Assembly (NCBI RefSeq): GCF_000504285.1 | Contig: NZ_KI632511.1 | Span: forward strand, 1,795,372-1,859,371 | Direction of reading: 5' to 3' | Origin: Actinospica robiniae DSM 44927 | Lineage (GTDB): Bacteria > Actinomycetota > Actinomycetes > Streptomycetales > Catenulisporaceae | DNA: 64,000 bases | Part shown: one piece after another, positions 27,300-53,856 of the stretch | Position numbering within the stretch: the first letter of the stretch is position 1 | Layout: each line of letters opens with the position of its first letter | Position numbers and translations under genes: made by a program | The notes under the pieces: generated by a model | Databases searched by the model: none | The model's input: only the letters and a program-made list of their open reading frames with translations | What the model was told of the DNA's origin: nothing

Positions 27300-28475
27300 T
27301 CATGCGCCGTTGAAGTTGAGCTGCTGCGCTCCGAACTGGCCCTGATTGATCACTCCAGGGTCCGTCAACAGGCTCGCACCGTTCTTGTTGTGCGGGCCGG
27401 TCGGGCCGACCAGCCCGTTCCACGCCATGAAGTAGGAGGCGAGGGGGTAGTTTTTGTGCAGGGCATTGATCCAGGCGGTGAAGTCGACGGCTGAGTCCGC
27501 CCCGTTGTTCCCGTTGTCGCCGCCGAGTTCGGCGAACGCGAAGGGCTTGCTTTCGTGTTGGGCCAGCCCGGAAAGCTCCTTGTAGGTTTGCGGCACGTCC
27601 TGGGTGTGAGCGGGGGCGGGTCCGGCGGGCTGGTTGGTGTAGCAGTCCGCTCCGACGACGTCGGCGTATTGCCTGCCCGGGAAGTAGTCCGTGGTGGCGG
27701 TGGCTTGGCCGGTCGCGCCGCCGGCGCCGCCCGCCGTCTCGCAAGCGGGCGACCAGACCCAGAGCACGTTGTGCCCTGACGTGCCGAGACTCGCGCCGAC
27801 GCGGCGGAACATGTCCTGCCAGACCTGGCGGAAGACCGCCGGGTCCTGACCGCTCCACCAGAAGGACGCGCCGTTCATCTCGGGCAACGGTCGGAAGAGC
27901 ACGGGCACCCCTGCGTTCGTCAGACGGGCTAATCCGGCTGCGACCTGCGTGAGTTGTCCGTCCCACGCCCGGCCGATCGAGGTGTTCGGCTGGGTCAACT
28001 GAGCGAACTGAGCCGCCGTCATGGGTTTGGTGAATACTGCGCCGGACGGGTTAGGCGCATGGACGCTCACGGCGACCAGTCCACCGGCCGAGGCGTACTG
28101 CGACAGCGCGCCGTCGCAGGACGTGTCGATCACCGGCTGGCCCGAGGCGGGAAGATCGACGTAGTCGCAGCCGATCAGCCCCGGAGAATGCCCGTCGGCC
28201 GACCAGGACGTTGCCGAGAAGCCGGTTCCGTATCCGCCGAAGTACCCGGAGGCGAGCCGTGGTCCCGACGCTCGGGTGGGCAGTGCCTCGAACCAGGCGA
28301 GCTCGCGTTGCGCCGCGGTTCCGGCCAGGGTGTCCGCGGGCGACGCCATGCTGACGTTCGGAACCGTGGACGACGAGTCGCATCCAGCGGCCCCCGTACA
28401 CACCATGCCCAAGCACACGCCGGCCGCCGCGAGGCGGGCCCTGCAGCTGCGCCCGAGGGATCGTGCTCCGGCCAT
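27300..28475 (-). CDS. GH26-like secreted glycoside hydrolase lipoprotein (beta-mannanase type)
   Basis: 391 residues from ATG 28475, which has GGAAGG seven bases upstream; an ATG five codons earlier has none. A lipobox (TGAAGC, Cys near residue 32) indicates anchoring to the outer face of the membrane. The barrel shows GH26 features: VLFRPLPEMNGASFWW carries the acid/base Glu, FAFAELGG the nucleophile Glu, and WVWSP and YFMAWN are typical strands. GH26 enzymes cut beta-mannan or related glucans. It lies on the left flank of the hemicellulase island and faces the EACC1-like gene. The two catalytic Glu residues are present, so it should be active. Confidence 0.82.
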   Translation of the reverse strand: MAGARSLGRSCRARLAAAGVCLGMVCTGAAGCDSSSTVPNVSMASPADTLAGTAAQRELAWFEALPTRASGPRLASGYFGGYGTGFSATSWSADGHSPGLIGCDYVDLPASGQPVIDTSCDGALSQYASAGGLVAVSVHAPNPSGAVFTKPMTAAQFAQLTQPNTSIGRAWDGQLTQVAAGLARLTNAGVPVLFRPLPEMNGASFWWSGQDPAVFRQVWQDMFRRVGASLGTSGHNVLWVWSPACETAGGAGGATGQATATTDYFPGRQYADVVGADCYTNQPAGPAPAHTQDVPQTYKELSGLAQHESKPFAFAELGGDNGNNGADSAVDFTAWINALHKNYPLASYFMAWNGLVGPTGPHNKNGASLLTDPGVINQGQFGAQQLNFNGA

Positions 28476-28776
28476 GATTCCGCCTTCCATGATATTCGTA
28501 TCCTAATAAACCGACCCTGTTTGCCCGCTTACGGGCCGGTTCATCCCAGATTACGGTGCGAGAGCCGGAACGACGGCAATGCGGGAGGCGCGCCGATCCA
28601 TGCCCCCGCCGCCGGACTCCTCCGAAGGGCCCGCGACACCACCGCGAACGCCTCCCCTAACGCCTCCGCGAACGCCGAATCCGGCGTCCCCGTCGTCGCG
28701 CGCTTCACCCGTTTCGCCTAATTCGCCGCCCTCGAAGCGGGTGCCGCGGTCGCCGGGCAATCACGTTGCCTGAGTG
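28476..28776. other. 301 bp without a gene
   Basis: Holds an AT-rich patch around 28490-28515 just upstream of the GH26 start (likely its promoter) and a Pro-rich spurious plus-strand frame at 28579-28773. No gene is supported. Confidence 0.5.
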
Positions 28777-30360
28777 TCACGCCCAGGGCGGGTGCACGAC
28801 GAAGGAGCTCTCGTCGTCGAACGCGGTGGTGCCGTCGGAGACATCGATGTAGAAGGCGCCGGCGCGCAGCCGGATGACCAGATAGGGGTAGTTCAGTGAC
28901 TGCAGATGCACCGAGTCGGCTGTTGCGCCGGGGTGGGGGCAGAACGTGGCGTCTTCGTGGAACAGCTGTGTGCCGTCTGGGGCGCTGAGCTGAAGTCGCA
29001 GTTCGTAGTGGCGCAGGTAGAGCCCGTTGGAGGCGACGAATGAGACGCACTTTGCGTCGGCGAGGCCGCGGACCACCGTGAACGTCGCTTGTCTCCTGGC
29101 GGTCAGGTTGCTGGAGGCGGAAACCGAAGCCAGGTCGGCGTACACGGCCGGGTCGGCGAGGTAGTGGCCGGGTTCGGATACCAGTTCCAGCGACAACGGG
29201 CCGAGCGGCACTGTGCCGGCCGGTATCGCGCTCGGCGAAGGCGACGGGTCAGGGTCAGGGGTGTGGCTTGCGGGGTGCACGGCTGCTGTCGGGGCCGCGG
29301 TCGGGGTCGGCTTGTGCGTCGAGGCGGGCGGCCAGGTCGTAGTCGCGATGACGCCCACGACCACTGCGACGCCGATCGCGCTGGTGACGGCGGGATGCGC
29401 CGCTGCCGGACGCACCACTTTGCGGATCTGGGACGTACCGCGCAGACCGTGTCGAGCGGCGTGAGCTCCCGCTCGACCGACCCTTGCAGCCGAGTGGGCG
29501 CCGGCCACAGCGGCACCCGGCGAACTCCCTACCGCCGCTGATGCCGCAGGCATCCACGCCAACAAGCCTTTCGCATGCAGCGCGGTAACCAGCGACGCAG
29601 GGACACCGATCGGGGCGAGCGACGGAAGCAGCCGCTCCAAGGGGATACGCCGCGCGGCGGCGACCGTGCAGACGGGGCACTGCCGCGTGTGACGGACTAT
29701 TCGCTTACGCCACAACGGCGAACGCCGACCGTCCCAGCTGGAGATCAGGTCCGCCAGGTCGGGACACCGCGGCTTGGCCACGAGAGCCGCGACCAGGCCG
29801 CGCGCTTGTTCCATCTGTTCGCGCATCCGCTGCACCCGCACCCCGGCGTGCGCAACACTCGTGTCAACCGCTTTCGCGAGCTCAGGCCGGCTCAGCAGCC
29901 CGGCTGTCTCCTGCCACCACAGCCCGAGTACCGCTCGGAAGCCGGGATCGAGCCAGCGGGCTGCCTCGGCAACTCGGCGCCGCTCGTCGGACAGCTCCAT
30001 CCGCAAAACGGTCTCGTTCTCGAGCGCGACGTCTCCCGGCAAAGCTCTCGCGTCGTCGACGGCTGCGGTTCGCTCATCCGCCGTCCGCTGCCTGCGCAGG
30101 TGCCCGTCGATCTGATGCACCGCTATGGCCAGCAGCCAAGGTCGGAAGCTCTCGGGTGACCGCAGATCCTTCAGGTCGCGTACGGCCCGCAGCAGGGTCT
30201 CCTGGACGACGTCGTCGACATCGACGTGCCCGCTCAACGCGCGCCCGACGACGTTGTACAGGAGCGGAAGATACTCCGCGACAAGCGCGTCACGCGCCCG
30301 GGCGTCGCCCTGCTGCGCCTCGAGGACGAGCTGGGAACCCTTGGCACTCGCGGTCGTCAC
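28777..30360 (-). CDS. ECF-type sigma factor fused to zinc anti-sigma motif, membrane helix and extracellular AbfB domain
   Basis: 527 residues from GTG 30360, with GGAGGGTG upstream. Sigma region 2 lies at about 15-90 (VDDVVQETLLRAVRDL, FRPWLLAIAVHQI) and region 4 at about 125-185. Residues 224-231, HTRQCPVC, are the H-x3-C-x2-C motif of zinc-binding anti-sigma domains. A single membrane helix lies at about 323-343, followed by a Thr/Pro linker and an AbfB-like arabinose-binding beta-trefoil at about 386-523 (YLRHYELRLQLSAPDGTQLF, EDATFCPHPG). The layout suggests a membrane-tethered sigma factor that senses arabinan or arabinoxylan outside the cell and is released to switch on genes, perhaps the enzyme island beginning 1.1 kb away. 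Confidence 0.85.
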   Translation of the reverse strand: MTTASAKGSQLVLEAQQGDARARDALVAEYLPLLYNVVGRALSGHVDVDDVVQETLLRAVRDLKDLRSPESFRPWLLAIAVHQIDGHLRRQRTADERTAAVDDARALPGDVALENETVLRMELSDERRRVAEAARWLDPGFRAVLGLWWQETAGLLSRPELAKAVDTSVAHAGVRVQRMREQMEQARGLVAALVAKPRCPDLADLISSWDGRRSPLWRKRIVRHTRQCPVCTVAAARRIPLERLLPSLAPIGVPASLVTALHAKGLLAWMPAASAAVGSSPGAAVAGAHSAARVGRAGAHAARHGLRGTSQIRKVVRPAAAHPAVTSAIGVAVVVGVIATTTWPPASTHKPTPTAAPTAAVHPASHTPDPDPSPSPSAIPAGTVPLGPLSLELVSEPGHYLADPAVYADLASVSASSNLTARRQATFTVVRGLADAKCVSFVASNGLYLRHYELRLQLSAPDGTQLFHEDATFCPHPGATADSVHLQSLNYPYLVIRLRAGAFYIDVSDGTTAFDDESSFVVHPPWA

Positions 30361-33204: not shown

Positions 33205-34659
33205 TCAGTGGCCGTAGCCTGCGGCCACGATGTTCGCCTGGACCGCGGCGTCGGTCGCGGCGGACGGGTAGCCGGAGGTCATCACGCCCTCGTAGAACGT
33301 GCCCTGCGCGCCGTCGCTGTTGTCACCGCCGGTGCCCAGGATGATGGCTCCCTGCTTGTGCATCGGGTTGTAGCCGGAGACGTTCGGGCGCACGCCGTCG
33401 TAGAACGTCGAGAGGCTGCCGGACTGGGCGTTGCCGCCGAGGATGGCCCAGTGGTTCGGGCCGCCGTTGACCATCGCGGTGAGGTAGCGGTAGCTCACGC
33501 TCGGGTCGTTCGAGTTGAGATGCTGGTTGACGCCGGAGAACAGGCCGTTCTCGAGGTCCGCCATGATCCACGGGCCGTTGCCCGAACCGTAGCCCCAGAC
33601 CTTGATGTTGCCGAAGTAGATCGCTTCCATGGTGCCGTTGCCGTCGTCGCGGCTGTTGGTCTCGGCGTTGCCGTAGTCGAAGCAGCAGCCGCCGTTGTAG
33701 TGGGTGCCGTCGAAGATGGCGTATTCGCCCTCGGAGTTGTCGCCGGTGGCGGTGCCGGTGGCGGAGTTGTCGCGGTAGCCGGTGCCCGGCGGGATGTAGA
33801 CGCCGTAGGCCTTGTGCCCGTTGAGTGTGGTCGCGGCCGAGGTCGCGTTGGCGAGGTTGTCCGGTCCCCCGGCGGCACCGCCGGCCGGTGCCTGGGTCAG
33901 GTTGTTGTGATGAGAGGTCTGGTCGTAGATGACCGTGATGACGCAGGTCGTGCCGGAGCAGAACGAGTCCTGGGTCGCCGCGTTGGCCACGCCGCCGGTG
34001 CTGACGACGCCGATGTCCTTCGTGGTGTTGTCCGAGGAACGGCGCACCTGGTAGAGCGGGCCGTTGTAGCCGGCGAACAGCGCGCGCGTGGTCGAGTGCG
34101 CGGCGACGCACGGCGTGCCGCCCGCGGCGAAGATGTCGCACGGCTCCTGCCCGGCGGGCGGCGGAGTCGGCGAGGTCGTCGGCGAACTGCTCGGGCTGGC
34201 GGAGGCGGACGTGGGTGCGGACGAGGTCGTCGTGACGCTGCCGGTACAGGCGACGCCGTTCAAGGCGAAGTTCGTCGGAGTCGGGTTGGAGCTGTTGTTC
34301 CAGGAGCCGTTGAACCCGAATGCCGCGGTTCCGCCGGTGGCGAGCGCACCGTTGTACGAGGCGTTCGCCACGGTCACGTTCGCGCCGGATTCGGTGTAGG
34401 TCCCGTTCCACAGCTGCGTGACCGTCTGCCCGGCGCCGAACGACCAGGTCAGGTTCCACGAACTGATCGCGTTGCCGAGGTTCGTGATGGTGACGTCGGC
34501 CCCGAATCCGCCGGGCCACTGGGAACTGACGGCGTAGTTCACGGAGCAGCCTGCTGCGGTGGCCGCCTGCGCCGAGACGGTGGCCAGCACGACGCCGGCG
34601 GTGGCGAGCCCCGCCGCCACGCCGGCCGCCACGGCCGCGCGACTTCGCGGAGAGAGCAT
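33205..34659 (-). CDS. Secreted CBM2-GH54 alpha-L-arabinofuranosidase (copy 1)
   Basis: 484 residues from ATG 34659, with GGAGG just upstream. A signal peptide to about residue 33 is followed by an N-terminal CBM2 (about 37-140), a Ser/Thr/Pro linker and a GH54 catalytic domain (about 172-484). Family features include PCDIFAAGGTPCVAAHSTTRAL, the Cys-Cys of GGCCFDYGN, Glu in TMEAIYFGN (candidate nucleophile) and Asp in GGDNSDG (candidate acid/base). It removes arabinofuranose from arabinoxylan or arabinan outside the cell. The fungal-type C-terminal AbfB module of GH54 is absent; CBM2 takes its place at the other end. A LacI-type operator sits 13 bp upstream of the start codon. Confidence 0.9.
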   Translation of the reverse strand: MLSPRSRAAVAAGVAAGLATAGVVLATVSAQAATAAGCSVNYAVSSQWPGGFGADVTITNLGNAISSWNLTWSFGAGQTVTQLWNGTYTESGANVTVANASYNGALATGGTAAFGFNGSWNNSSNPTPTNFALNGVACTGSVTTTSSAPTSASASPSSSPTTSPTPPPAGQEPCDIFAAGGTPCVAAHSTTRALFAGYNGPLYQVRRSSDNTTKDIGVVSTGGVANAATQDSFCSGTTCVITVIYDQTSHHNNLTQAPAGGAAGGPDNLANATSAATTLNGHKAYGVYIPPGTGYRDNSATGTATGDNSEGEYAIFDGTHYNGGCCFDYGNAETNSRDDGNGTMEAIYFGNIKVWGYGSGNGPWIMADLENGLFSGVNQHLNSNDPSVSYRYLTAMVNGGPNHWAILGGNAQSGSLSTFYDGVRPNVSGYNPMHKQGAIILGTGGDNSDGAQGTFYEGVMTSGYPSAATDAAVQANIVAAGYGH

Positions 34660-34672
34660 GGAGAGCCTCCAA

Positions 34673-34686
34673 TGTTAACGCTAACA
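34673..34686. promoter_or_regulatory. Operator A (TGTTAACGCTAACA), GH54 copy 1
   Basis: A near-perfect palindrome of the LacI-family operator type, 13 bp upstream of the GH54 start codon and just ahead of its ribosome site. The same 14 bp sequence recurs at GH54 copy 2, GH62 and GH27, with variants at GH30 and GH29. Confidence 0.65.
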
Positions 34687-35292: not shown

Positions 35293-35306
35293 TGTTAGCG
35301 TTAACG
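35293..35306. promoter_or_regulatory. Operator A variant (TGTTAGCGTTAACG) upstream of GH30
   Basis: Differs from the TGTTAACGCTAACA palindrome by a few bases and lies about 155 bp upstream of the GH30 start codon. Confidence 0.55.
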
Positions 35307-37304: not shown

Positions 37305-38804
37305 TCAGTGAAGGGCGATCGCCGTCCAGGACACCGCCGGCAGGTCGATGGTGAGCACGCCGTCGGCGAGCGTCGCGCTCTTGTTGGCGGACGGGGTCAC
37401 CCGGTACTGGTCGGTGAGCGTGTTCTTCGCGTATACGTCGGAGTCGGCGAGGGTGAGCGCCTCGACGATGCGCGATGAGCCGAGGCTGCGCAGGTCGATC
37501 GTGACCTGCGCAGCCTCGGTGAGGTCGCGGTTGACGAGGAAGAGCGCGGCTCGGTCCTCATCCACGGTCGCCACGGCGTCGACGAGGGATGCCTCGCCGT
37601 GGCGTGCCGTCTCGTACGTCGACGTATGGATCACGGGCCGGATCACCTCGCCCGAGGCGAGCCGGCTCGTGATCGAGAACGGGTAGAACGTCGTCTGACG
37701 CCAGGCCGGGCCGCCAGGCTCGGTCATGATCGGCGCGATCACGTTGACGAGCTGGGCGAGCGAGGCGGAGGTGACGCGGTCGCTGCGCTTGAGCAGCGTC
37801 ATCAGCAGGTTGCCGACGACGACGGCGTCCGCGACCGTGTAGACGTCCTCGAGCTTGCGCGGGGCGTAGTGCCATCCCTCGTCAGGCTTCTCGGACTCCA
37901 TGTGCTCCTTGAGGTACCAGATGTTCCACTCGTCGAAGGAGATGTTGATCTTCTTGTTCGAGCGCTTCTTGTACCCGACGTGGTCCGCGGTCGCGACGAC
38001 GGTGTCGATGAAGAAGTCCATGTCGAGCGCCGAGGCGAGGAAGGAGCCGAGGTCGCCGTCGTGCTCCTGGTAGTAGGCGTGGCAGGAGATGTAGTCGACG
38101 TGGTCGTAGCTGTGCTCGAGTACCGTGCGCTCCCAGTCGCCGAAGGTCGGCATGCCGGAGCCGGAGGAGCCGCAGACGACGAGTTCGAGGTCCTTGTCGG
38201 CCATCTTCATCGCGGCCGCGGTGCGCGCGGCGAGCTTGCCGTAGTCCTGCGCCGTCATGAACCCGGTCTGCCACGGGCCGTCCATCTCGTTGCCCAGGCA
38301 CCACATGCGCACGTTGTGCGGATCCGGCGTGCCGTTGGCGATACGCAGGTCGGAGAGCGCCGTGCCGGACGGGTGGTTGGCGTACTCGAGCAGGTCGAGC
38401 GCGGGCAGGATGCCGCGGGTGGCGATGTTGACCGCAAGCATCAGCTCGGAGTCGGTGAGCTTGAGCCACCTGGCGAACTCGTCGAGCCCGACCTGGTTCG
38501 ATTCGAGCGAGTGCCAGGCGAGGTCGCGGCGCACCGGGCGCTTCTCGCGCGGGCCGACCGAGTCCTCCCAGCGGAAGCCGGAGACGAAGTTGCCGCCGGG
38601 GTAGCGCACGGTCGTACTGCCGAGCTCTTTGACGAGCTCGACGACGTCCATGCGGAACCCGTCCTCGTTCGCGCTCGGGTGTCCCGGCTCGTAGAGCCCG
38701 TTGTACACGCAGCGGCCGAGGTGCTCGACGAACGAGCCGAAGGTGCGGCGCCGGACGGGGGCGATGACGGCGCTTCGGTCGAGTTCGATGTGGGCGCGGG
38801 GCAA
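37305..38804 (-). CDS. abfA: Intracellular GH51 alpha-L-arabinofuranosidase
   Basis: 499 residues from TTG 38804, with AGGAAGG upstream. There is no signal peptide, so it is cytoplasmic. Family marks: FGSFVEHLGRCVYNGLYEPG near the start, VRYPGGNFVSGF, acid/base Glu in CLGNEMDGPW near residue 174 and nucleophile Glu in ISFDEWNIWY near 295, then a C-terminal beta-sandwich. It would cut arabinose from short arabino-oligosaccharides after import, complementing the secreted GH54 and GH62 enzymes. It is divergent from a LacI gene (38967-39995); a matching GTTGCGCAA-containing site stands before each gene, suggesting control by that repressor. Confidence 0.93.
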   Translation of the reverse strand: MPRAHIELDRSAVIAPVRRRTFGSFVEHLGRCVYNGLYEPGHPSANEDGFRMDVVELVKELGSTTVRYPGGNFVSGFRWEDSVGPREKRPVRRDLAWHSLESNQVGLDEFARWLKLTDSELMLAVNIATRGILPALDLLEYANHPSGTALSDLRIANGTPDPHNVRMWCLGNEMDGPWQTGFMTAQDYGKLAARTAAAMKMADKDLELVVCGSSGSGMPTFGDWERTVLEHSYDHVDYISCHAYYQEHDGDLGSFLASALDMDFFIDTVVATADHVGYKKRSNKKINISFDEWNIWYLKEHMESEKPDEGWHYAPRKLEDVYTVADAVVVGNLLMTLLKRSDRVTSASLAQLVNVIAPIMTEPGGPAWRQTTFYPFSITSRLASGEVIRPVIHTSTYETARHGEASLVDAVATVDEDRAALFLVNRDLTEAAQVTIDLRSLGSSRIVEALTLADSDVYAKNTLTDQYRVTPSANKSATLADGVLTIDLPAVSWTAIALH

Positions 38805-38823
38805 CGTACTGGTCCTTCCTTAT

Positions 38824-38836
38824 CTTGCGCAACTTT
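38824..38836. promoter_or_regulatory. Operator C near the GH51 start
   Basis: CTTGCGCAACTTT, the reverse complement of AAAGTTGCGCAAG, lies 20 bp upstream of the GH51 start codon and shares the palindromic core TTGCGCAA with the copy at 38927-38939. Confidence 0.55.
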
Positions 38837-38926
38837 GAGGCCAACGACGGCCGGGCGCGAGGAGTAATTCGCGCATGGACAGCTTAGGAACGATACATCG
38901 GCTTCGGATCGGCAGGCCATAGGGAG

Positions 38927-38939
38927 AAAGTTGCGCAAC
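38927..38939. promoter_or_regulatory. Operator C upstream of the LacI gene
   Basis: AAAGTTGCGCAAC lies 28 bp before ATG 38967 and mirrors the site at 38824-38836. It probably mediates autoregulation. If translation instead began at TTG 38931, the site would lie over the start codon. Confidence 0.55.
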
Positions 38940-38966
38940 AAATGCAGTGCGCCGCATACTCGCGGC

Positions 38967-39995
38967 ATGACGCAGCGCGCATGGCGCAGACCTCCCGGAT
39001 CGCCGACGCTGACCCAGATCGCCCGAGCCGCGGGCGTGCCGGTGCCGGTGGTCTCGAAGGTGCTCAACGGGCGCAGCGACGTGTCGCCGTCGGTGCGCGA
39101 GACCGTCGCCGAGCAGCTTCGGCTGGCCGGTTACACCCCGGCCCCGTCGGTGAATGCTTCCGCGCTGACCGCTCTGCTCGACCTCGTGGTCTCGGCCGTG
39201 GAAGGCACCTGGGCGAACGTCATGCTCTCCGGGATCGAGGGCGCGGCGGCGGAGACGGGTCTCGACGTCGTCGTCGTGCTCGCGCGCGAGGGCGTGCCGG
39301 AGGAACGCGACTGGGTCCAGCGCCTGATCGATCGCGGCAGTAAGGGCGCGGTGCTCGCGCTGGTCGCCCCGACCGCCGCCGAATACCGCCGACTGCGGGC
39401 CGCCGGCGTCCAGGTGGTCGCCCTCGACCCGCACAAGCCGATCTCCGGCGCGATCCCGACCGTGGGCGCGAGCCACTGGACCGGCGGCCGGCAGGCCGCA
39501 GAACACTTGATCGCCCTGGGGCACGAGCGTTTCGCGGTCATCGCAGGCACAGCGCGCCACCAGTACAGCCAGGCCCGGGTCGACGGATTCCGCTCCGCGC
39601 TCATCGCCCACGGCTTCGCCGGCGACACGCTCGATGTGGGTTACGGCGACTGGCGACGCAGCGGAGCGGCCGAGGCCGCACGGGTGCTGCTCGACCAGCC
39701 GGACCGGCCGACCGCGATCTTCGCCTGCTCCGACCGGATGGCGCTCGGCGTCTTCGACGCGGCCGCCGAACGGGAACTGCGGGTCCCGGGTGATCTGAGC
39801 GTCGTCGGGTTCGACGACCTCCCCGAGGCGCGCTGGCTCAGCCCGGGGCTGACCACCGTCCGCCAGCCCGTGCGCGAGATGGCTGAGCAGGCCGCCCGGA
39901 TGCTGCTGCGCCTGATCGACGGCGAGCAGCTTCAGGTACCCCGGGTCGAGTTGCAAACCCAGCTGATCGAGCGCGGGAGTACCTGCGCCTTCTGA
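38967..39995 (+). CDS. LacI-family repressor, likely regulator of GH51
   Basis: 342 residues from ATG 38967; a TTG at 38931 with AGGGAG upstream is an alternative that adds 12 residues. The LacI HTH is PTLTQIARAAGVPVPVVSKVLNGRSDV with the hinge region following. The periplasmic-binding-protein-like sensor (about 65-330) has VALDPHKPIS, HLIALGHERFAVIAG, IFACSDRMALGVFDAA and SVVGFDDLPEARWLSPGLTTVRQP. It likely binds an arabino- or xylo-oligosaccharide. Matching operator C sites before this gene and before divergent GH51 suggest it controls both. A terminator hairpin overlaps its stop codon. Confidence 0.9.
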   Translation: MTQRAWRRPPGSPTLTQIARAAGVPVPVVSKVLNGRSDVSPSVRETVAEQLRLAGYTPAPSVNASALTALLDLVVSAVEGTWANVMLSGIEGAAAETGLDVVVVLAREGVPEERDWVQRLIDRGSKGAVLALVAPTAAEYRRLRAAGVQVVALDPHKPISGAIPTVGASHWTGGRQAAEHLIALGHERFAVIAGTARHQYSQARVDGFRSALIAHGFAGDTLDVGYGDWRRSGAAEAARVLLDQPDRPTAIFACSDRMALGVFDAAAERELRVPGDLSVVGFDDLPEARWLSPGLTTVRQPVREMAEQAARMLLRLIDGEQLQVPRVELQTQLIERGSTCAF

Positions 39996-41738: not shown

Positions 41739-41752
41739 TGTTAACGCTAACA
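41739..41752. promoter_or_regulatory. Operator A (TGTTAACGCTAACA) upstream of GH54 copy 2
   Basis: Exact copy of the recurrent palindrome, 33 bp upstream of GTG 41786. Confidence 0.65.
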
Positions 41753-41785: not shown

Positions 41786-43315
41786 GTGAGACCACTTCCG
41801 CTCCACCTCGCCCGCACCCGCAGCGAGCGCACGCGGCCGCCGGGCCGGCTCCGCACGCTCGGCCGGATGTCCGCTGCCACGGCGCTCGCCGCGGCGGCGC
41901 TGACCGGCTACGCGATCACGGCCGGCACCGCGCAGGCGGCGTCGCAGGGTCCGTGTGACATCTACGCGGCGGGCGGCACTCCGTGCGTGGCCGCCCACTC
42001 CACCACCCGGGCCCTGTACGCCGCGTACAGCGGGAACCTGTACCAGGTGCGGCGTTCGTCGGACAATACGACGCTGAACATCGGCGTCACCTCGGCCGGC
42101 GGCTACGCGAACGCCGCGGCGCAGGACTCGTTCTGCGCGGGCACCTCGTGCGTGATCACCGAGATCTACGACCAGTCCGGGCGCGGCAACAACCTCACCG
42201 ACGCCCCGGCCGGCGGCGCACAGCCCGGACCGGACAAGCTCGCGGTGGCCAACGCCGCACCCACCACCCTGGGCGGCCACGAGGCCTACGGCGTCGCGAT
42301 CGTCCCGGGCACCGGCTACCGCGACGACGCCACCAACGGCATCGCCACCGGCGATAACCCCGAGTCCGAGTACGCGGTCCTCGACGGCCAGGACTACAAC
42401 GGCGGCTGCTGCTTCGACTACGGCAACGCCGAGACGAACAACAACGACGACGGCAACGGCACCATGGAAGCCATCTACTTCGGCAGCATCAAGGTCTGGG
42501 GCTACGGCGCCGGCAACGGCCCGTGGATCATGGCCGACATGGAGAACGGCCTGTACTCCGGCCGCAACGCCGGATACAACGCCAACGACCCGACGACCAG
42601 CTACCGCTACACCACCGCGATGATCGAGGGCGGCGCCAACCAGTGGGCCATCCTCGGCGGCAACGCCCAGTCCGGCACCCTCGCCACCGACTACAGCGGC
42701 GCGCGGCCCAACGTCTCGGGCTACAACCCGATGAAGAAGCAGGGCGCGATCATCCTCGGCATCGGCGGCGACAACAGCGACGGCGTCGACGGCACCTTCT
42801 ACGAAGGCGTCATGACCACCGGCTACGCCTCCGCCACCACCGAAGCCTCAGTCCAGGCCAACATCGTCGCGGCCGGCTACGGCTCCGGCAGCACCGGCGG
42901 TGGCACCGGCGGTGGCGGGACGTCCGGGGAGATCCACGCCGTCGGCGCGGGCAAGTGCCTGGACGACCCCAACGGCAGCACGACCGGCGGCACCCAGCAG
43001 CAGATCTACGACTGCTGGGGCGGGGCCCCGCAGGTCTGGACCCACACCGCCTCCGGTCAGCTGACCGTCACGAACAACGGCACAACCGACTGCCTCGATG
43101 CCAACGGCAACGGTACGACGAACGGCACCAAGGTGATCATCTGGCCCTGCAACGGCCAGACCAACCAGCAGTGGAACATCAACTCCAACGGCTCCATCAC
43201 CGGCGTTCAGTCAGGCCTCTGCCTGGACGTGGTGGGCGCCGGGACCGCCGACGGCACGCTCATTCAGCTCTACAGCTGCTCGGGCGGATCCAACCAGAAG
43301 TGGTCGCTGAGCTGA
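41786..43315 (+). CDS. Secreted GH54 alpha-L-arabinofuranosidase with ricin-type module (copy 2)
   Basis: 509 residues. GTG 41786 follows AGGAAGG; the frame extends to 41738, but that would place the start over operator A. A long signal peptide is cleaved near residue 52. The GH54 domain (about 55-370) has PCDIYAAGGTPCVAAHSTTRAL, GGCCFDYGN, TMEAIYFGS and GGDNSDGVDGTFYEG. A Gly-rich linker is followed by a complete ricin-type beta-trefoil with three QxW repeats, which replaces the CBM2 of copies 1 and 3. It releases arabinofuranose from polymers; the lectin module probably binds xylan or galactose/arabinose chains. A terminator follows 28 bp after the stop. Confidence 0.92.
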   Translation: MRPLPLHLARTRSERTRPPGRLRTLGRMSAATALAAAALTGYAITAGTAQAASQGPCDIYAAGGTPCVAAHSTTRALYAAYSGNLYQVRRSSDNTTLNIGVTSAGGYANAAAQDSFCAGTSCVITEIYDQSGRGNNLTDAPAGGAQPGPDKLAVANAAPTTLGGHEAYGVAIVPGTGYRDDATNGIATGDNPESEYAVLDGQDYNGGCCFDYGNAETNNNDDGNGTMEAIYFGSIKVWGYGAGNGPWIMADMENGLYSGRNAGYNANDPTTSYRYTTAMIEGGANQWAILGGNAQSGTLATDYSGARPNVSGYNPMKKQGAIILGIGGDNSDGVDGTFYEGVMTTGYASATTEASVQANIVAAGYGSGSTGGGTGGGGTSGEIHAVGAGKCLDDPNGSTTGGTQQQIYDCWGGAPQVWTHTASGQLTVTNNGTTDCLDANGNGTTNGTKVIIWPCNGQTNQQWNINSNGSITGVQSGLCLDVVGAGTADGTLIQLYSCSGGSNQKWSLS

Positions 43316-47050: not shown

Positions 47051-47064
47051 TGTTAACGCTAACA
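47051..47064. promoter_or_regulatory. Operator A (TGTTAACGCTAACA) upstream of GH62
   Basis: Exact copy of the recurrent palindrome, 30 bp upstream of GTG 47095. Confidence 0.65.
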
Positions 47065-49486: not shown

Positions 49487-50935
49487 CTATTGGTATCCGG
49501 CGGCCACGATGCTCGCTTGGATGGCGCTGTCGGTTGCGTCCGAGGGGTAGCCGGCGACGATGGCGCCTTCGTAGAACGTGCCCTGGCTCTGGTTGGTGTT
49601 GCGGGCGCAGCAGTCGCCGCCGCTGCCGAGGATGATCGCGCCCTGCTGCTTCATCGGGTCGTATCCCGGCGGGAGTGATCCGTTCCACAGGGTGCTCAGC
49701 GTGCCGGACTGCGCGTTCGCGCCCTTCAGCGCCATCTGGGTGCTCCCGTTGTTCTTCAGCATCGCGGTGACGAACTTGCTGGTGAACGCGCGCTGGCCCG
49801 GGTTCCAGGAGGAGCTGCCGCCGGGGAAGAGCCCGTACTCGAGGTCCGCCTGGACCCACGGCCCGGTCCCGGAGCAGCCGCCGAACCAGCAGCTGGTGCC
49901 GAAGTAGATCGCGTCCATCGCGCCGGCGCCGTCGGCGCTGCGGTCGGTTTCGCTGTTGCCGTAGTCGAAGCAGCAGCCGCTGTTGACGTGCGTGCCCGAG
50001 GTGACCATGTAAATGCCCTGCGGACTGCTGCCGGTGGGTATGCCGGAGGATGAACCGTTGTGCCAGTAGCTGTTGCCGGGCTTGATGTAGAGCGAGTAGG
50101 CCTTGTGGCCGCCGGCGCTCAGCGACTCGGTGGTGGCGGTCGCCGCCGTGTCCTCGCCGCCGGCTCCGCCAGAGCCCTGATACGTCATGTTGTTGCCGTG
50201 TCCGGACTGGTCGTAGACGATCGTGATCACGCAGCTCGTGTTCGCGCAGAACGCGTCCTGGGCCGCTGCGTTCGCGTATCCCCCGGTAGCCAGGACTCCG
50301 ATGTCCTTCGTCGTGTTGTCCGAGGAGCGCCGCACCTGGTAGAGCGAGCCGGAATACGCGGCGTAAAGCGCACGCACGGTGCTGTGGGCCGCGACGCACG
50401 GGGTGCCCCCGGCCGCGTAGATGTCGCACGGCAGCTTCGACGAACTGGCCGTTCCCGTCGGCGACGCGGAAGCGGACGCGCTCGCGGAAGCACTGGCGCT
50501 AGCGCTGGTGGCGGTGACCGCGCCGGTGCAGGTGGTGCCGTTGAGGGTGAACTGGGCCGGGGCGGGGTTCGCGGTGGTCCAGGAGCCGTTGAACCCGAAC
50601 GTGGTGGTGCCGTTGGTGGGGATCGCGCCGTCGTAGGAGGCGTTGGTGACGGTGACGTTCGTGCCGGTCTGGGTGTAGCTGCCGTTCCAGAGTTGGGTGA
50701 TGGCCTGGCCGGTGGTGAAGGACCAGCCCAGGCTCCACGCGCTGATCGGGCTGCCGAGGTTGGTGATGGTGACGTTCGCGCCGAAGCCGCCTTGCCACTG
50801 GCTGCTGACGGTATAGGAGACCTGGCAGCCGGCGGCGGCCTGGGCGGTGGTGGTCGAGGCCAGGGTCAACCCGGCGGCGGCCAGCACGGCGGCGCTGCCG
50901 CCGGCCAGCCACGAACGATGACGCAGAAGACTCAC
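49487..50935 (-). CDS. Secreted CBM2-GH54 alpha-L-arabinofuranosidase (copy 3)
   Basis: 482 residues from GTG 50935 (weak AGGA upstream). The signal peptide and CBM2 are essentially identical to those of GH62. A linker rich in Ser/Ala leads to the GH54 domain (about 165-482), with PCDIYAAGGTPCVAAHSTVRAL, GGCCFDYGNSE, MDAIYFGTSCWFGGCSG and GGDCCARNTNQSQGTFYEG. Extra Cys residues and an Asp in place of the Glu of MEAIYFG in copies 1 and 2 are notable: the usual nucleophile position reads MDAIYFG. It lies 86 bp after GH29 on the same strand with no operator between, so the two probably form an operon. Confidence 0.88.
   Translation of the reverse strand: MSLLRHRSWLAGGSAAVLAAAGLTLASTTTAQAAAGCQVSYTVSSQWQGGFGANVTITNLGSPISAWSLGWSFTTGQAITQLWNGSYTQTGTNVTVTNASYDGAIPTNGTTTFGFNGSWTTANPAPAQFTLNGTTCTGAVTATSASASASASASASASPTGTASSSKLPCDIYAAGGTPCVAAHSTVRALYAAYSGSLYQVRRSSDNTTKDIGVLATGGYANAAAQDAFCANTSCVITIVYDQSGHGNNMTYQGSGGAGGEDTAATATTESLSAGGHKAYSLYIKPGNSYWHNGSSSGIPTGSSPQGIYMVTSGTHVNSGCCFDYGNSETDRSADGAGAMDAIYFGTSCWFGGCSGTGPWVQADLEYGLFPGGSSSWNPGQRAFTSKFVTAMLKNNGSTQMALKGANAQSGTLSTLWNGSLPPGYDPMKQQGAIILGSGGDCCARNTNQSQGTFYEGAIVAGYPSDATDSAIQASIVAAGYQ
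50525..50935 (-). repeat. Inverted repeat arm, about 410 bp, right copy
   Basis: Mirror of 47095-47505, coding for the same signal peptide and CBM2. The two arms are in opposite orientation and about 3 kb apart. Confidence 0.9.
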
Positions 50936-53842: not shown

Positions 53843-53856
53843 TGTTAACGCTAACA
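53843..53856. promoter_or_regulatory. Operator A (TGTTAACGCTAACA) upstream of GH27
   Basis: Exact copy of the recurrent palindrome, 104 bp upstream of the GH27 start codon. Confidence 0.65.

What the first reader, a model, noticed from the sequence alone, without database searches (positions are those of the whole stretch)
28777..30360. Membrane-tethered sigma factor with an extracellular arabinose-binding domain
One protein combines ECF-type sigma regions, an H-x3-C-x2-C anti-sigma zinc motif (224-231), one TM helix and an AbfB-like trefoil. It is encoded 1.1 kb from an island with five arabinofuranosidases. This suggests direct sensing of arabinoxylan or arabinan outside the cell and release of the sigma factor by proteolysis, a one-protein analogue of the clostridial RsgI/SigI sugar sensors.
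Basis: partly seen in the sequence, partly recalled or inferred. Interest (0 to 1): 0.66.

Follow-up and report, generated by a model that had tools for sequence, protein, structure and literature searches.

The report
Membrane sigma factor with arabinose sensor
One bacterial protein joins a gene-switching sigma factor, a likely built-in inhibitor, a membrane anchor and an outside arabinose-binding domain; relatives usually carry it next to a xylan-degrading enzyme gene, so it is probably a one-piece sugar sensor, a new variant of a kind of sigma factor already known.

Summary
The 527-aa protein at 28777-30360(-) has ECF sigma regions, C199-x24-H224-x3-C228-x2-C231, one TM segment (324-342), a Pro/Thr linker and a CBM42/AbfB beta-trefoil (PF05270, 8e-37). 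The five arabinofuranosidases are real (GH54 x3, GH51, GH62). One-protein sigma/zinc/TM/carbohydrate-domain factors are already described (ECF52, ECF53), so this is a new variant. New here: (1) 36 distinct sigma-CBM42 proteins with zinc ligands invariant, and one CBM42 pocket (H451/D470) invariant in the 30 checked; (2) 32 of 38 such loci have a GH10/GH62 gene directly downstream, against 1 of 45 paralog loci; (3) a candidate promoter, TTT-NN-GTTAC-N18-GCCTCC, between the two genes: of 25 sites in 246 Streptomyces genomes, 19 are at this locus and six elsewhere (reversed-pattern control: 9). Likely mechanism: arabinofuranosyl-xylan binding outside leads to proteolytic release of a self-inhibited sigma that drives the adjacent xylanase gene. 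Not supported: control of the whole island in this genome. The motif is absent here, while three of five arabinofuranosidase genes plus GH30 and GH27 have a LacI-type operator (21 sites genome-wide) that the sigma gene lacks.

The parts
28777..30360 (-). sigma-CBM42 gene, 527 aa, GTG start
   Evidence: domains
29806..30297 (-). ECF sigma regions 2 to 4 (residues 22-185)
   Evidence: NCBIfam TIGR02937 2.3e-15; Sigma70_r2 26-92 7e-14
29668..29766 (-). putative zinc anti-sigma domain, C199-x24-H224-x3-C228-x2-C231
   Evidence: four ligands invariant in 71 of 71; helical model pLDDT 87.5; fold match inconclusive
29335..29391 (-). single transmembrane segment, residues 324-342
   Evidence: hydropathy 1.95; lowest rough dG -0.82, preceded by 11 K/R/H and no D/E in 57 residues (home-made scale)
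29203..29334 (-). Pro/Thr/Ser-rich linker, residues 343-386
   Evidence: translation; pLDDT below 50 up to residue 375
28795..29181 (-). AbfB/CBM42 beta-trefoil, residues 394-522
   Evidence: PF05270 8.1e-37; fold match 9fnk TMt 0.90
28951..29010 (-). beta-pocket residues H451 to D470
   Evidence: both invariant in 30 of 30; spacing 19 as H70/D89 of AtAbf43C CBM42 (PMC12493170 passages)
27300..28490 (-). GH26 gene, nearest downstream gene on the same strand (gap 286 bp)
   Evidence: PF02156 1.3e-36; membership in a sigma regulon not shown
34673..34686 (.). LacI-type operator, 14 bp from the GH54-CBM2 start (rival regulation)
35293..35306 (.). LacI-type operator (1 mismatch), 63 bp from the GH30-CBM2 start
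41739..41752 (.). LacI-type operator, 128 bp from the GH54-RicinB start
47051..47064 (.). LacI-type operator, 92 bp from the GH62-CBM2 start
53843..53856 (.). LacI-type operator, 118 bp from the GH27-RicinB start

Best explanation
It is a membrane-tethered, self-inhibited ECF sigma factor that senses arabinofuranosyl side chains outside the cell. The cytoplasmic sigma regions are held inactive by the fused zinc domain (inferred from an invariant motif). One TM helix carries a Pro/Thr-rich stalk and a CBM42 trefoil to the outside (predicted). Binding of arabinofuranosyl decorations of xylan, or of released fragments, through the conserved beta pocket triggers cleavage and release of the sigma part (inferred by analogy with RsgI and the published ECF52 model). 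In relatives the released sigma most likely drives one adjacent hemicellulase gene, usually a GH10-GH62 xylanase/arabinofuranosidase, from a dedicated promoter TTT-NN-GTTAC-N18-GCCTCC (inferred from conservation, position and near-uniqueness). In the window's organism the target is not identified; the downstream GH26 gene is the simplest candidate.
For: Domains. Zinc ligands 71 of 71. H451/D470 and cysteines C438/C474 30 of 30. A gene matching GH10 and/or GH62 catalytic domains lies on the same strand within 2 kb downstream in 32 of 38 distinct sigma-CBM42 loci (29 of them match both) against 1 of 45 paralog loci, that one (L074) being a sensor-less member of the same clade (a looser clustering gave 33 of 39 against 3 of 45). 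Pfam on examples: GH10+RicinB+GH62 in L042, GH10+GH62 in L052 and L107. Outside Streptomyces, by BLAST: GH10 downstream and GH62 divergent in L066, divergent GH10 in L071; by Pfam GH10-GH62 then GH54 in L107. Motif: GCCTCC is at least 90% conserved in 31 of 37 regions that could be anchored on the T-tract/GTTA part. TTTNNGTTA[CT] is intergenic before a same-strand gene in 29 of 38 sigma-CBM42 loci and 1 of 45 paralog loci. Among 29 of the 30 best GH10-GH62-type loci fetched, all 17 with sigma-CBM42 upstream (16 seen, 1 at a contig edge) have the motif and 0 of 12 without it. Of 25 sites in 246 genomes, 18 have sigma-CBM42 beside them and 1 more is the contig-edge case.
Against: In this genome the motif is absent and island enzymes look LacI-regulated. 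Most of the 38 loci are Streptomyces orthologs, so counts are not independent; the 12 motif-less enzymes are also more divergent (66-73% against 78-92% identity). Two genomes with sigma-CBM42 (L107's and L066's) have no strict motif site. The motif could be another regulator's site; GTTAC/GCCTCC is not a textbook ECF promoter (recalled). L034, L050, L062, L064 and L082 have no intact GH10/GH62 neighbour within 7 kb (L062 has a GH62 fragment). [quoted passage not shown] A 13-member clade works, if at all, without the TM-linker-ectodomain part. No protease or binding data; how many of the 246 genomes have sigma-CBM42 could not be counted (searches failed).
Confidence: 0.6

Rival explanations
1. 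One reading: in this organism the sigma factor directly switches on the neighbouring arabinofuranosidase island.
For: Proximity (1.1 kb to GH12) and five arabinofuranosidases; in relatives the sigma is next to arabinoxylan enzymes.
Against: LacI-type operators before 3 of 5 arabinofuranosidases plus GH30 and GH27, none at the sigma gene; by coordinates the same operator lies just upstream of all three other CBM42 proteins of the genome; relatives' motif not found above chance in the window.
Confidence: 0.15
2. The conserved element before GH10-GH62 is the site of another regulator or a vegetative promoter; the sigma acts elsewhere and is merely co-inherited.
For: Conservation extends to about 60 bp upstream of GTTA in Streptomyces; the short motif was not counted in 9 of 38 sigma-CBM42 loci (in some of them the next gene start was called too far away) and is absent from the window.
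Against: Motif found again before differently arranged genes in Catellatospora L050, Paractinoplanes L071 and, weaker, Actinoplanes L107; sites above background lie at sigma-CBM42 loci.
Confidence: 0.25
3. The zinc domain is a thiol-redox or zinc switch and the CBM42 only anchors the cell to xylan; the signal is stress, not sugar.
For: The motif resembles redox-sensitive zinc anti-sigma domains (recalled); the short clade keeps it without an ectodomain.
Against: Ectodomains vary while the core is kept, as in sensor swapping; the recurring neighbours are hemicellulases.
Confidence: 0.1

Closest known systems
ECF52 sigma factors, SCO4117 of Streptomyces coelicolor (PMC5826349, passages read)
   Same: ECF sigma, zinc motif, TM, Pro-rich extension and carbohydrate-binding domain in one actinobacterial protein; release by proteolysis is the proposed model there
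   Different: ECF52 carries an NPCBM-type domain; of two NPCBM-bearing proteins judged by eye to be ECF52-like sigma factors, one aligns at 24.6% identity, E 0.15 (L186) and the other not at E up to 1 (L188); SCO4117 controls development and antibiotics
ECF53 sigma factors (PMC10766802 section 6 read, PMC8999054 passages read)
   Same: Described as fused to anti-sigma and TM parts, some ECF52/ECF53 with predicted glycosyl hydrolase or carbohydrate-binding domains; 13 of 60 scanned C-termini here match Glyco_hydro_cc
   Different: No reference sequence or group model at hand; a CBM42 ectodomain and a linked target promoter were not found in the passages read
SigI5/RsgI5 of Clostridium (Acetivibrio) thermocellum (PMC4711584, PMC12203970, passages read; structure 9fnk)
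   Same: Membrane sensor with CBM42 outside and sigma control inside; CBM42 fold match TMt 0.90
   Different: Two proteins; sigma-I family; RsgI autocleavage; here one protein with an ECF sigma and a zinc domain
IutY of Pseudomonas putida (ECF243; PMC8999054, passages read)
   Same: Sigma and anti-sigma fused in one membrane protein and released by proteolysis
   Different: Responds to a xenosiderophore through cell-surface signalling; no sugar domain mentioned

Membership tests
CBM42/AbfB domain | PF05270 above the curated cut-off | tested here: met
   126.8 bits against 22.8
CBM42/AbfB domain | beta-trefoil fold of CBM42 | tested here: met
   AlphaFold model against 9fnk TMt 0.90, rmsd 1.4
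CBM42/AbfB domain | arabinofuranose pocket His, Asp and Tyr | tested here: inconclusive
   beta pocket H451 and D470 kept 30 of 30, but the Y73 position is Leu in 26 of 30; gamma pocket lacks His in the window protein and Asp in most members; alpha pocket not tested (PMC12493170 passages)
CBM42/AbfB domain | binds arabinofuranosyl sugars | not testable with these tools
   needs a binding assay
ECF sigma factor | match to the ECF sigma superfamily model | tested here: met
   TIGR02937 56.6 bits against a cut-off of 42.9
zinc anti-sigma domain | H-x3-C-x2-C plus an upstream Cys/His ligand (definition recalled) | tested here: met
   C199, H224, C228, C231 invariant 71 of 71
zinc anti-sigma domain | fold or profile match to known anti-sigma domains | tested here: inconclusive
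   3hug_B E 0.96; 5wuq_C E 7.5, Z 2.2; no Pfam match
ECF52 | sigma, zinc motif, TM, Pro-rich stretch, carbohydrate-binding domain | tested here: met
ECF52 | close sequence relation to ECF52 sigma proteins | tested here: not met
   24.6% identity, E 0.15 to the NPCBM-sigma protein of L186; none at E up to 1 to that of L188 (their ECF52 status judged by eye)
ECF53 | group membership by the ECF53 model | not testable with these tools
   two classification papers are not held and no model or reference sequence was available
RsgI/SigI | separate sigma-I and RsgI proteins with the RsgI N-terminal domain | tested here: not met
   one protein; only sigma region 2, AbfB and weak PhyR_sigma2 and DUF7910 in Pfam at E up to 10

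The most novel reading that the evidence does not exclude
An actinobacterial family of one-protein transmembrane sigma switches whose ectodomains (CBM42, CAP, GH-like, beta-helix, ricin-type) are exchanged on a constant sigma-zinc-TM core. The CBM42 branch runs a private circuit of one sensor protein, one near genome-unique promoter and one arabinoxylan enzyme gene, and one branch has lost membrane anchor and sensor altogether.
Probability: 0.45. Interest if true: 0.7.

Novelty: new variant of a known kind. Interest (0 to 1): 0.55.

Why it matters
Sugar sensing by fused ECF sigma factors has been predicted for ECF52/ECF53 but, according to PMC10766802 (2024, section 6), not validated experimentally. 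This branch offers a defined ligand class, a near genome-unique candidate promoter and one adjacent target gene in ordinary Streptomyces strains, so the whole model can be tested with one deletion and one reporter. It would also be a simple part for engineered hemicellulase induction.

Tried and rejected
Rejected: control of the whole island by this sigma (no motif in the window; LacI-type operators instead). Rejected: close ECF52 membership. Rejected: hydrophobic stretch 244-262 of the Streptomyces proteins as a second TM. It is weak in the window, L107, L082, L071 and L066, and a similar stretch is flagged in 9 of the 13 sensor-less short members; the dG scale was home-made, so topology of the Streptomyces members is less sure. 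The best motif scores in the window (30658 and 46841) are at chance level (40 first-order simulated windows). A single origin of the CBM42 fusion is not supported: 37 of 38 rows lie in one starred clade that also holds 13 short and 6 other rows, and L005 lies elsewhere (labels other than AbfB were assigned by rough text patterns and by length). The identities of boxes against spacer are circular, because the rows were picked with the motif, and are not used. Fold searches with the zinc domain alone listed RsiW among unrelated rows.

No paper on a CBM42-bearing sigma factor was seen in the listings of searches of the held library; Huang 2015 and Casas-Pastor 2021 are not held (identifiers recalled), Pinto and Mascher 2016 and Pinto 2019 were not looked up, so prior mention there cannot be excluded.

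The window itself is not in these counts. A1 scanned 60 of 62 long C-termini (L083 and L097 left out) from residue 281; two of them proved to be CBM42. A2 holds 30 sigma-CBM42 proteins, A3 71 of 81 zinc-domain fragments, which were cut around H-x3-C-x2-C. One search used 29 of the 30 loci (L159, a GH62-only match, left out). The phylum sample scored 3 candidates per genome.

Full report
WHAT IS THERE. The gene at 28777-30360 on the minus strand encodes 527 aa. It matches sigma region 2 (26-92, 7e-14), the ECF superfamily model (22-185) and AbfB (394-522, 8.1e-37). Between them lie H-x3-C-x2-C at 224-231 and one hydrophobic segment at 324-342, then a Pro/Thr/Ser-rich stalk. The AlphaFold model from 30 sequences is confident in most of the sigma part and in the trefoil and below pLDDT 50 from 268 to 375. 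The trefoil matches GH54 enzyme 1wd3, AtAbf43C and, closely by target length, the CBM42 of the clostridial anti-sigma factor RsgI5 (9fnk, TMt 0.90, rmsd 1.4, 31% identity).

LIGAND SITE. In AtAbf43C the CBM42 beta pocket uses H70, Y73 and D89 (PMC12493170, passages read). The same spacing gives H451 and D470 here, invariant in 30 of 30; the Tyr position is Leu in 26 of 30. The gamma pocket has lost its His in the window protein and its Asp in most members; the alpha pocket was not tested. One arabinofuranose site is thus probably kept, with altered detail. Cysteines C438 and C474 are invariant, which fits an extracytoplasmic domain.

A FAMILY WITH CHANGING ECTODOMAINS. In a sample of 396 genomes of the phylum only the own protein passed E 1e-80. 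A scan of 84,980 species genomes gave the 80 best loci of a capped list; 36 distinct sigma-CBM42 proteins were aligned. Of 60 other C-termini scanned, 24 match CAP, 13 Glyco_hydro_cc, 3 a beta-helix, 1 ricin-type, 1 Lcl_C, and 2 proved to be CBM42. C199, H224, C228 and C231 are invariant across 71 fragments. In a tree of 111 cores, 37 of 38 CBM42 rows fall in one well-supported clade with 13 short and 6 other rows; L005 lies elsewhere, which suggests a second acquisition.

NEIGHBOURS IN RELATIVES. Within 2 kb downstream on the same strand, 32 of 38 distinct sigma-CBM42 loci have a gene matching the GH10 and/or GH62 catalytic domains, 29 of them both; of 45 paralog loci one does, L074, itself a sensor-less member of the same clade. 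A looser clustering gave 33 of 39 against 3 of 45. Most loci are Streptomyces orthologs, so these are not independent events. In L042 the gene encodes GH10 xylanase, ricin-type domain and GH62 arabinofuranosidase. A gene family of about 730-890 aa, in L042 with ricin-type and Asp-box domains, is clustered in 23 of 39 against 0 of 45. More distant loci repeat the link in other arrangements: L066 (GH10 downstream, GH62 divergent), L071 (divergent GH10), L107 (GH10-GH62, then GH54 and a GH29-like gene). L034, L050, L062, L064 and L082 show none intact within 7 kb.

CANDIDATE PROMOTER. The intergenic region after the sigma gene holds TTT-NN-GTTAC-N18-GCCTCC; 27 of 37 regions have it in strict form. 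In the 31 of 37 regions that could be anchored on the T-tract/GTTA part, GCCTCC was at least 90% conserved although not used as anchor. The pattern TTTNNGTTAN{18,20}GCCTMC hit 10 of 13 chosen genomes, once in nine and twice in one; the own genome and those of L066 and L107 have none. In 246 Streptomyces genomes it has 25 sites in 24 genomes; the reversed control has 9 sites in 7 genomes (counted from the table). Eighteen of the 25 sites have sigma-CBM42 beside them, one more is a GH10-GH62 gene at a contig edge, and six are elsewhere, about the background. Of 29 GH10-GH62-type loci from the top of the list, 17 with sigma-CBM42 upstream (one inferred at the contig edge) all carry it and 12 without it do not; these 12 are also more diverged, so ancestry is a confounder. 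The loose form TTTNNGTTA[CT] stands before a same-strand gene in 29 of 38 sigma-CBM42 loci and 1 of 45 paralog loci (one search gave 29 of 39 with one contig counted twice). Variants recur in Catellatospora L050, Paractinoplanes L071 and Actinoplanes L107 in front of differently arranged genes, and AAGTGTTACG stands before the divergent GH62 of L066.

THIS GENOME IS DIFFERENT. Here the downstream gene is GH26. The motif scores no better than chance in the window. Instead TGTTARCGYTAACA occurs at 21 places in the genome with at most one mismatch (11 perfect; control 0), five of them in the island, before GH54 (33205), GH30, GH54 (41867), GH62 and GH27. A weaker copy precedes GH29. By coordinates, sites also lie just upstream of the genome's three other CBM42 proteins. 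No site lies at the sigma gene. GH51 and the GH54 at 49487 show none either. The simplest reading is that a LacI-family repressor controls most of the arabinofuranosidase genes and the sigma factor has a separate target.

MECHANISM. Shown by sequence: domain order, conserved zinc ligands, conserved pocket, recurring neighbour, conserved motif. Predicted: single TM and outside location of CBM42. Inferred: intramolecular inhibition, sugar-triggered proteolysis and promoter recognition. The proteolysis step follows the model quoted for ECF52 (PMC5826349, passages) and the RsgI cascade (PMC12203970, passages). A search for a site-2 protease in this genome could not be run.

NOVELTY. PMC10766802 (section 6 read) states that some ECF52 and ECF53 proteins have predicted glycosyl hydrolase and carbohydrate-binding domains, without experimental validation. 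This is therefore a new variant of a known kind. The added value is a specific ligand domain, a recurring target gene and a testable promoter.

Noticed in passing
L072, L074-L078, L080, L081, L087, L088, L091, L092, L114: A 13-member clade of sigma plus zinc domain that ends before the TM-linker-ectodomain part, nested among CBM42 members. In the two loci whose neighbours were scanned with Pfam, an MR_MLE enzyme, GH5-type and GH95 genes (L114) and a GH10 gene (L074) lie beside it: probably a sensor-less descendant.
   Followed up: partly
L035:5930-8071 (own genome, near 2.863 Mb): A sigma-zinc protein of 241 aa without TM starts 18 bp after a GH54-AbfB enzyme gene on the same strand: the CBM42 sits on the enzyme there and the sigma has no membrane anchor.
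   Followed up: partly
window 34673, 35293, 41739, 47051, 53843 and 16 further places of the genome: LacI-type operator TGTTARCGYTAACA marks an arabinofuranosidase regulon; by coordinates it also lies upstream of the three other CBM42 proteins.
   Followed up: partly
L040, L043 and other Streptomyces loci, upstream of GH10-GH62: An inverted repeat CTTCAGGGG ... CCCCTGAAG lies between the candidate promoter and the enzyme's start codon, a possible leader hairpin.
   Followed up: no
window 33205-34659, 41867-43315, 49487-50887: None of the three GH54 enzymes of the island shows the AbfB domain in Pfam; they carry CBM2 or a ricin-type domain instead.
   Followed up: no
window 47143 and 49487-50887: The called GH62 and GH54 genes begin with the same 40 residues (signal and start of CBM2), suggesting recent duplication or conversion.
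   Followed up: no
window 38804-39036: The divergent region of GH51 and a LacI-like gene holds TTGCGCAA palindromes, a possible separate operator.
   Followed up: no
L005/L034 (G029): A CBM42-sigma protein whose core groups with L016 and L021, away from all other CBM42 members; its neighbours include a melibiase-type gene.
   Followed up: no
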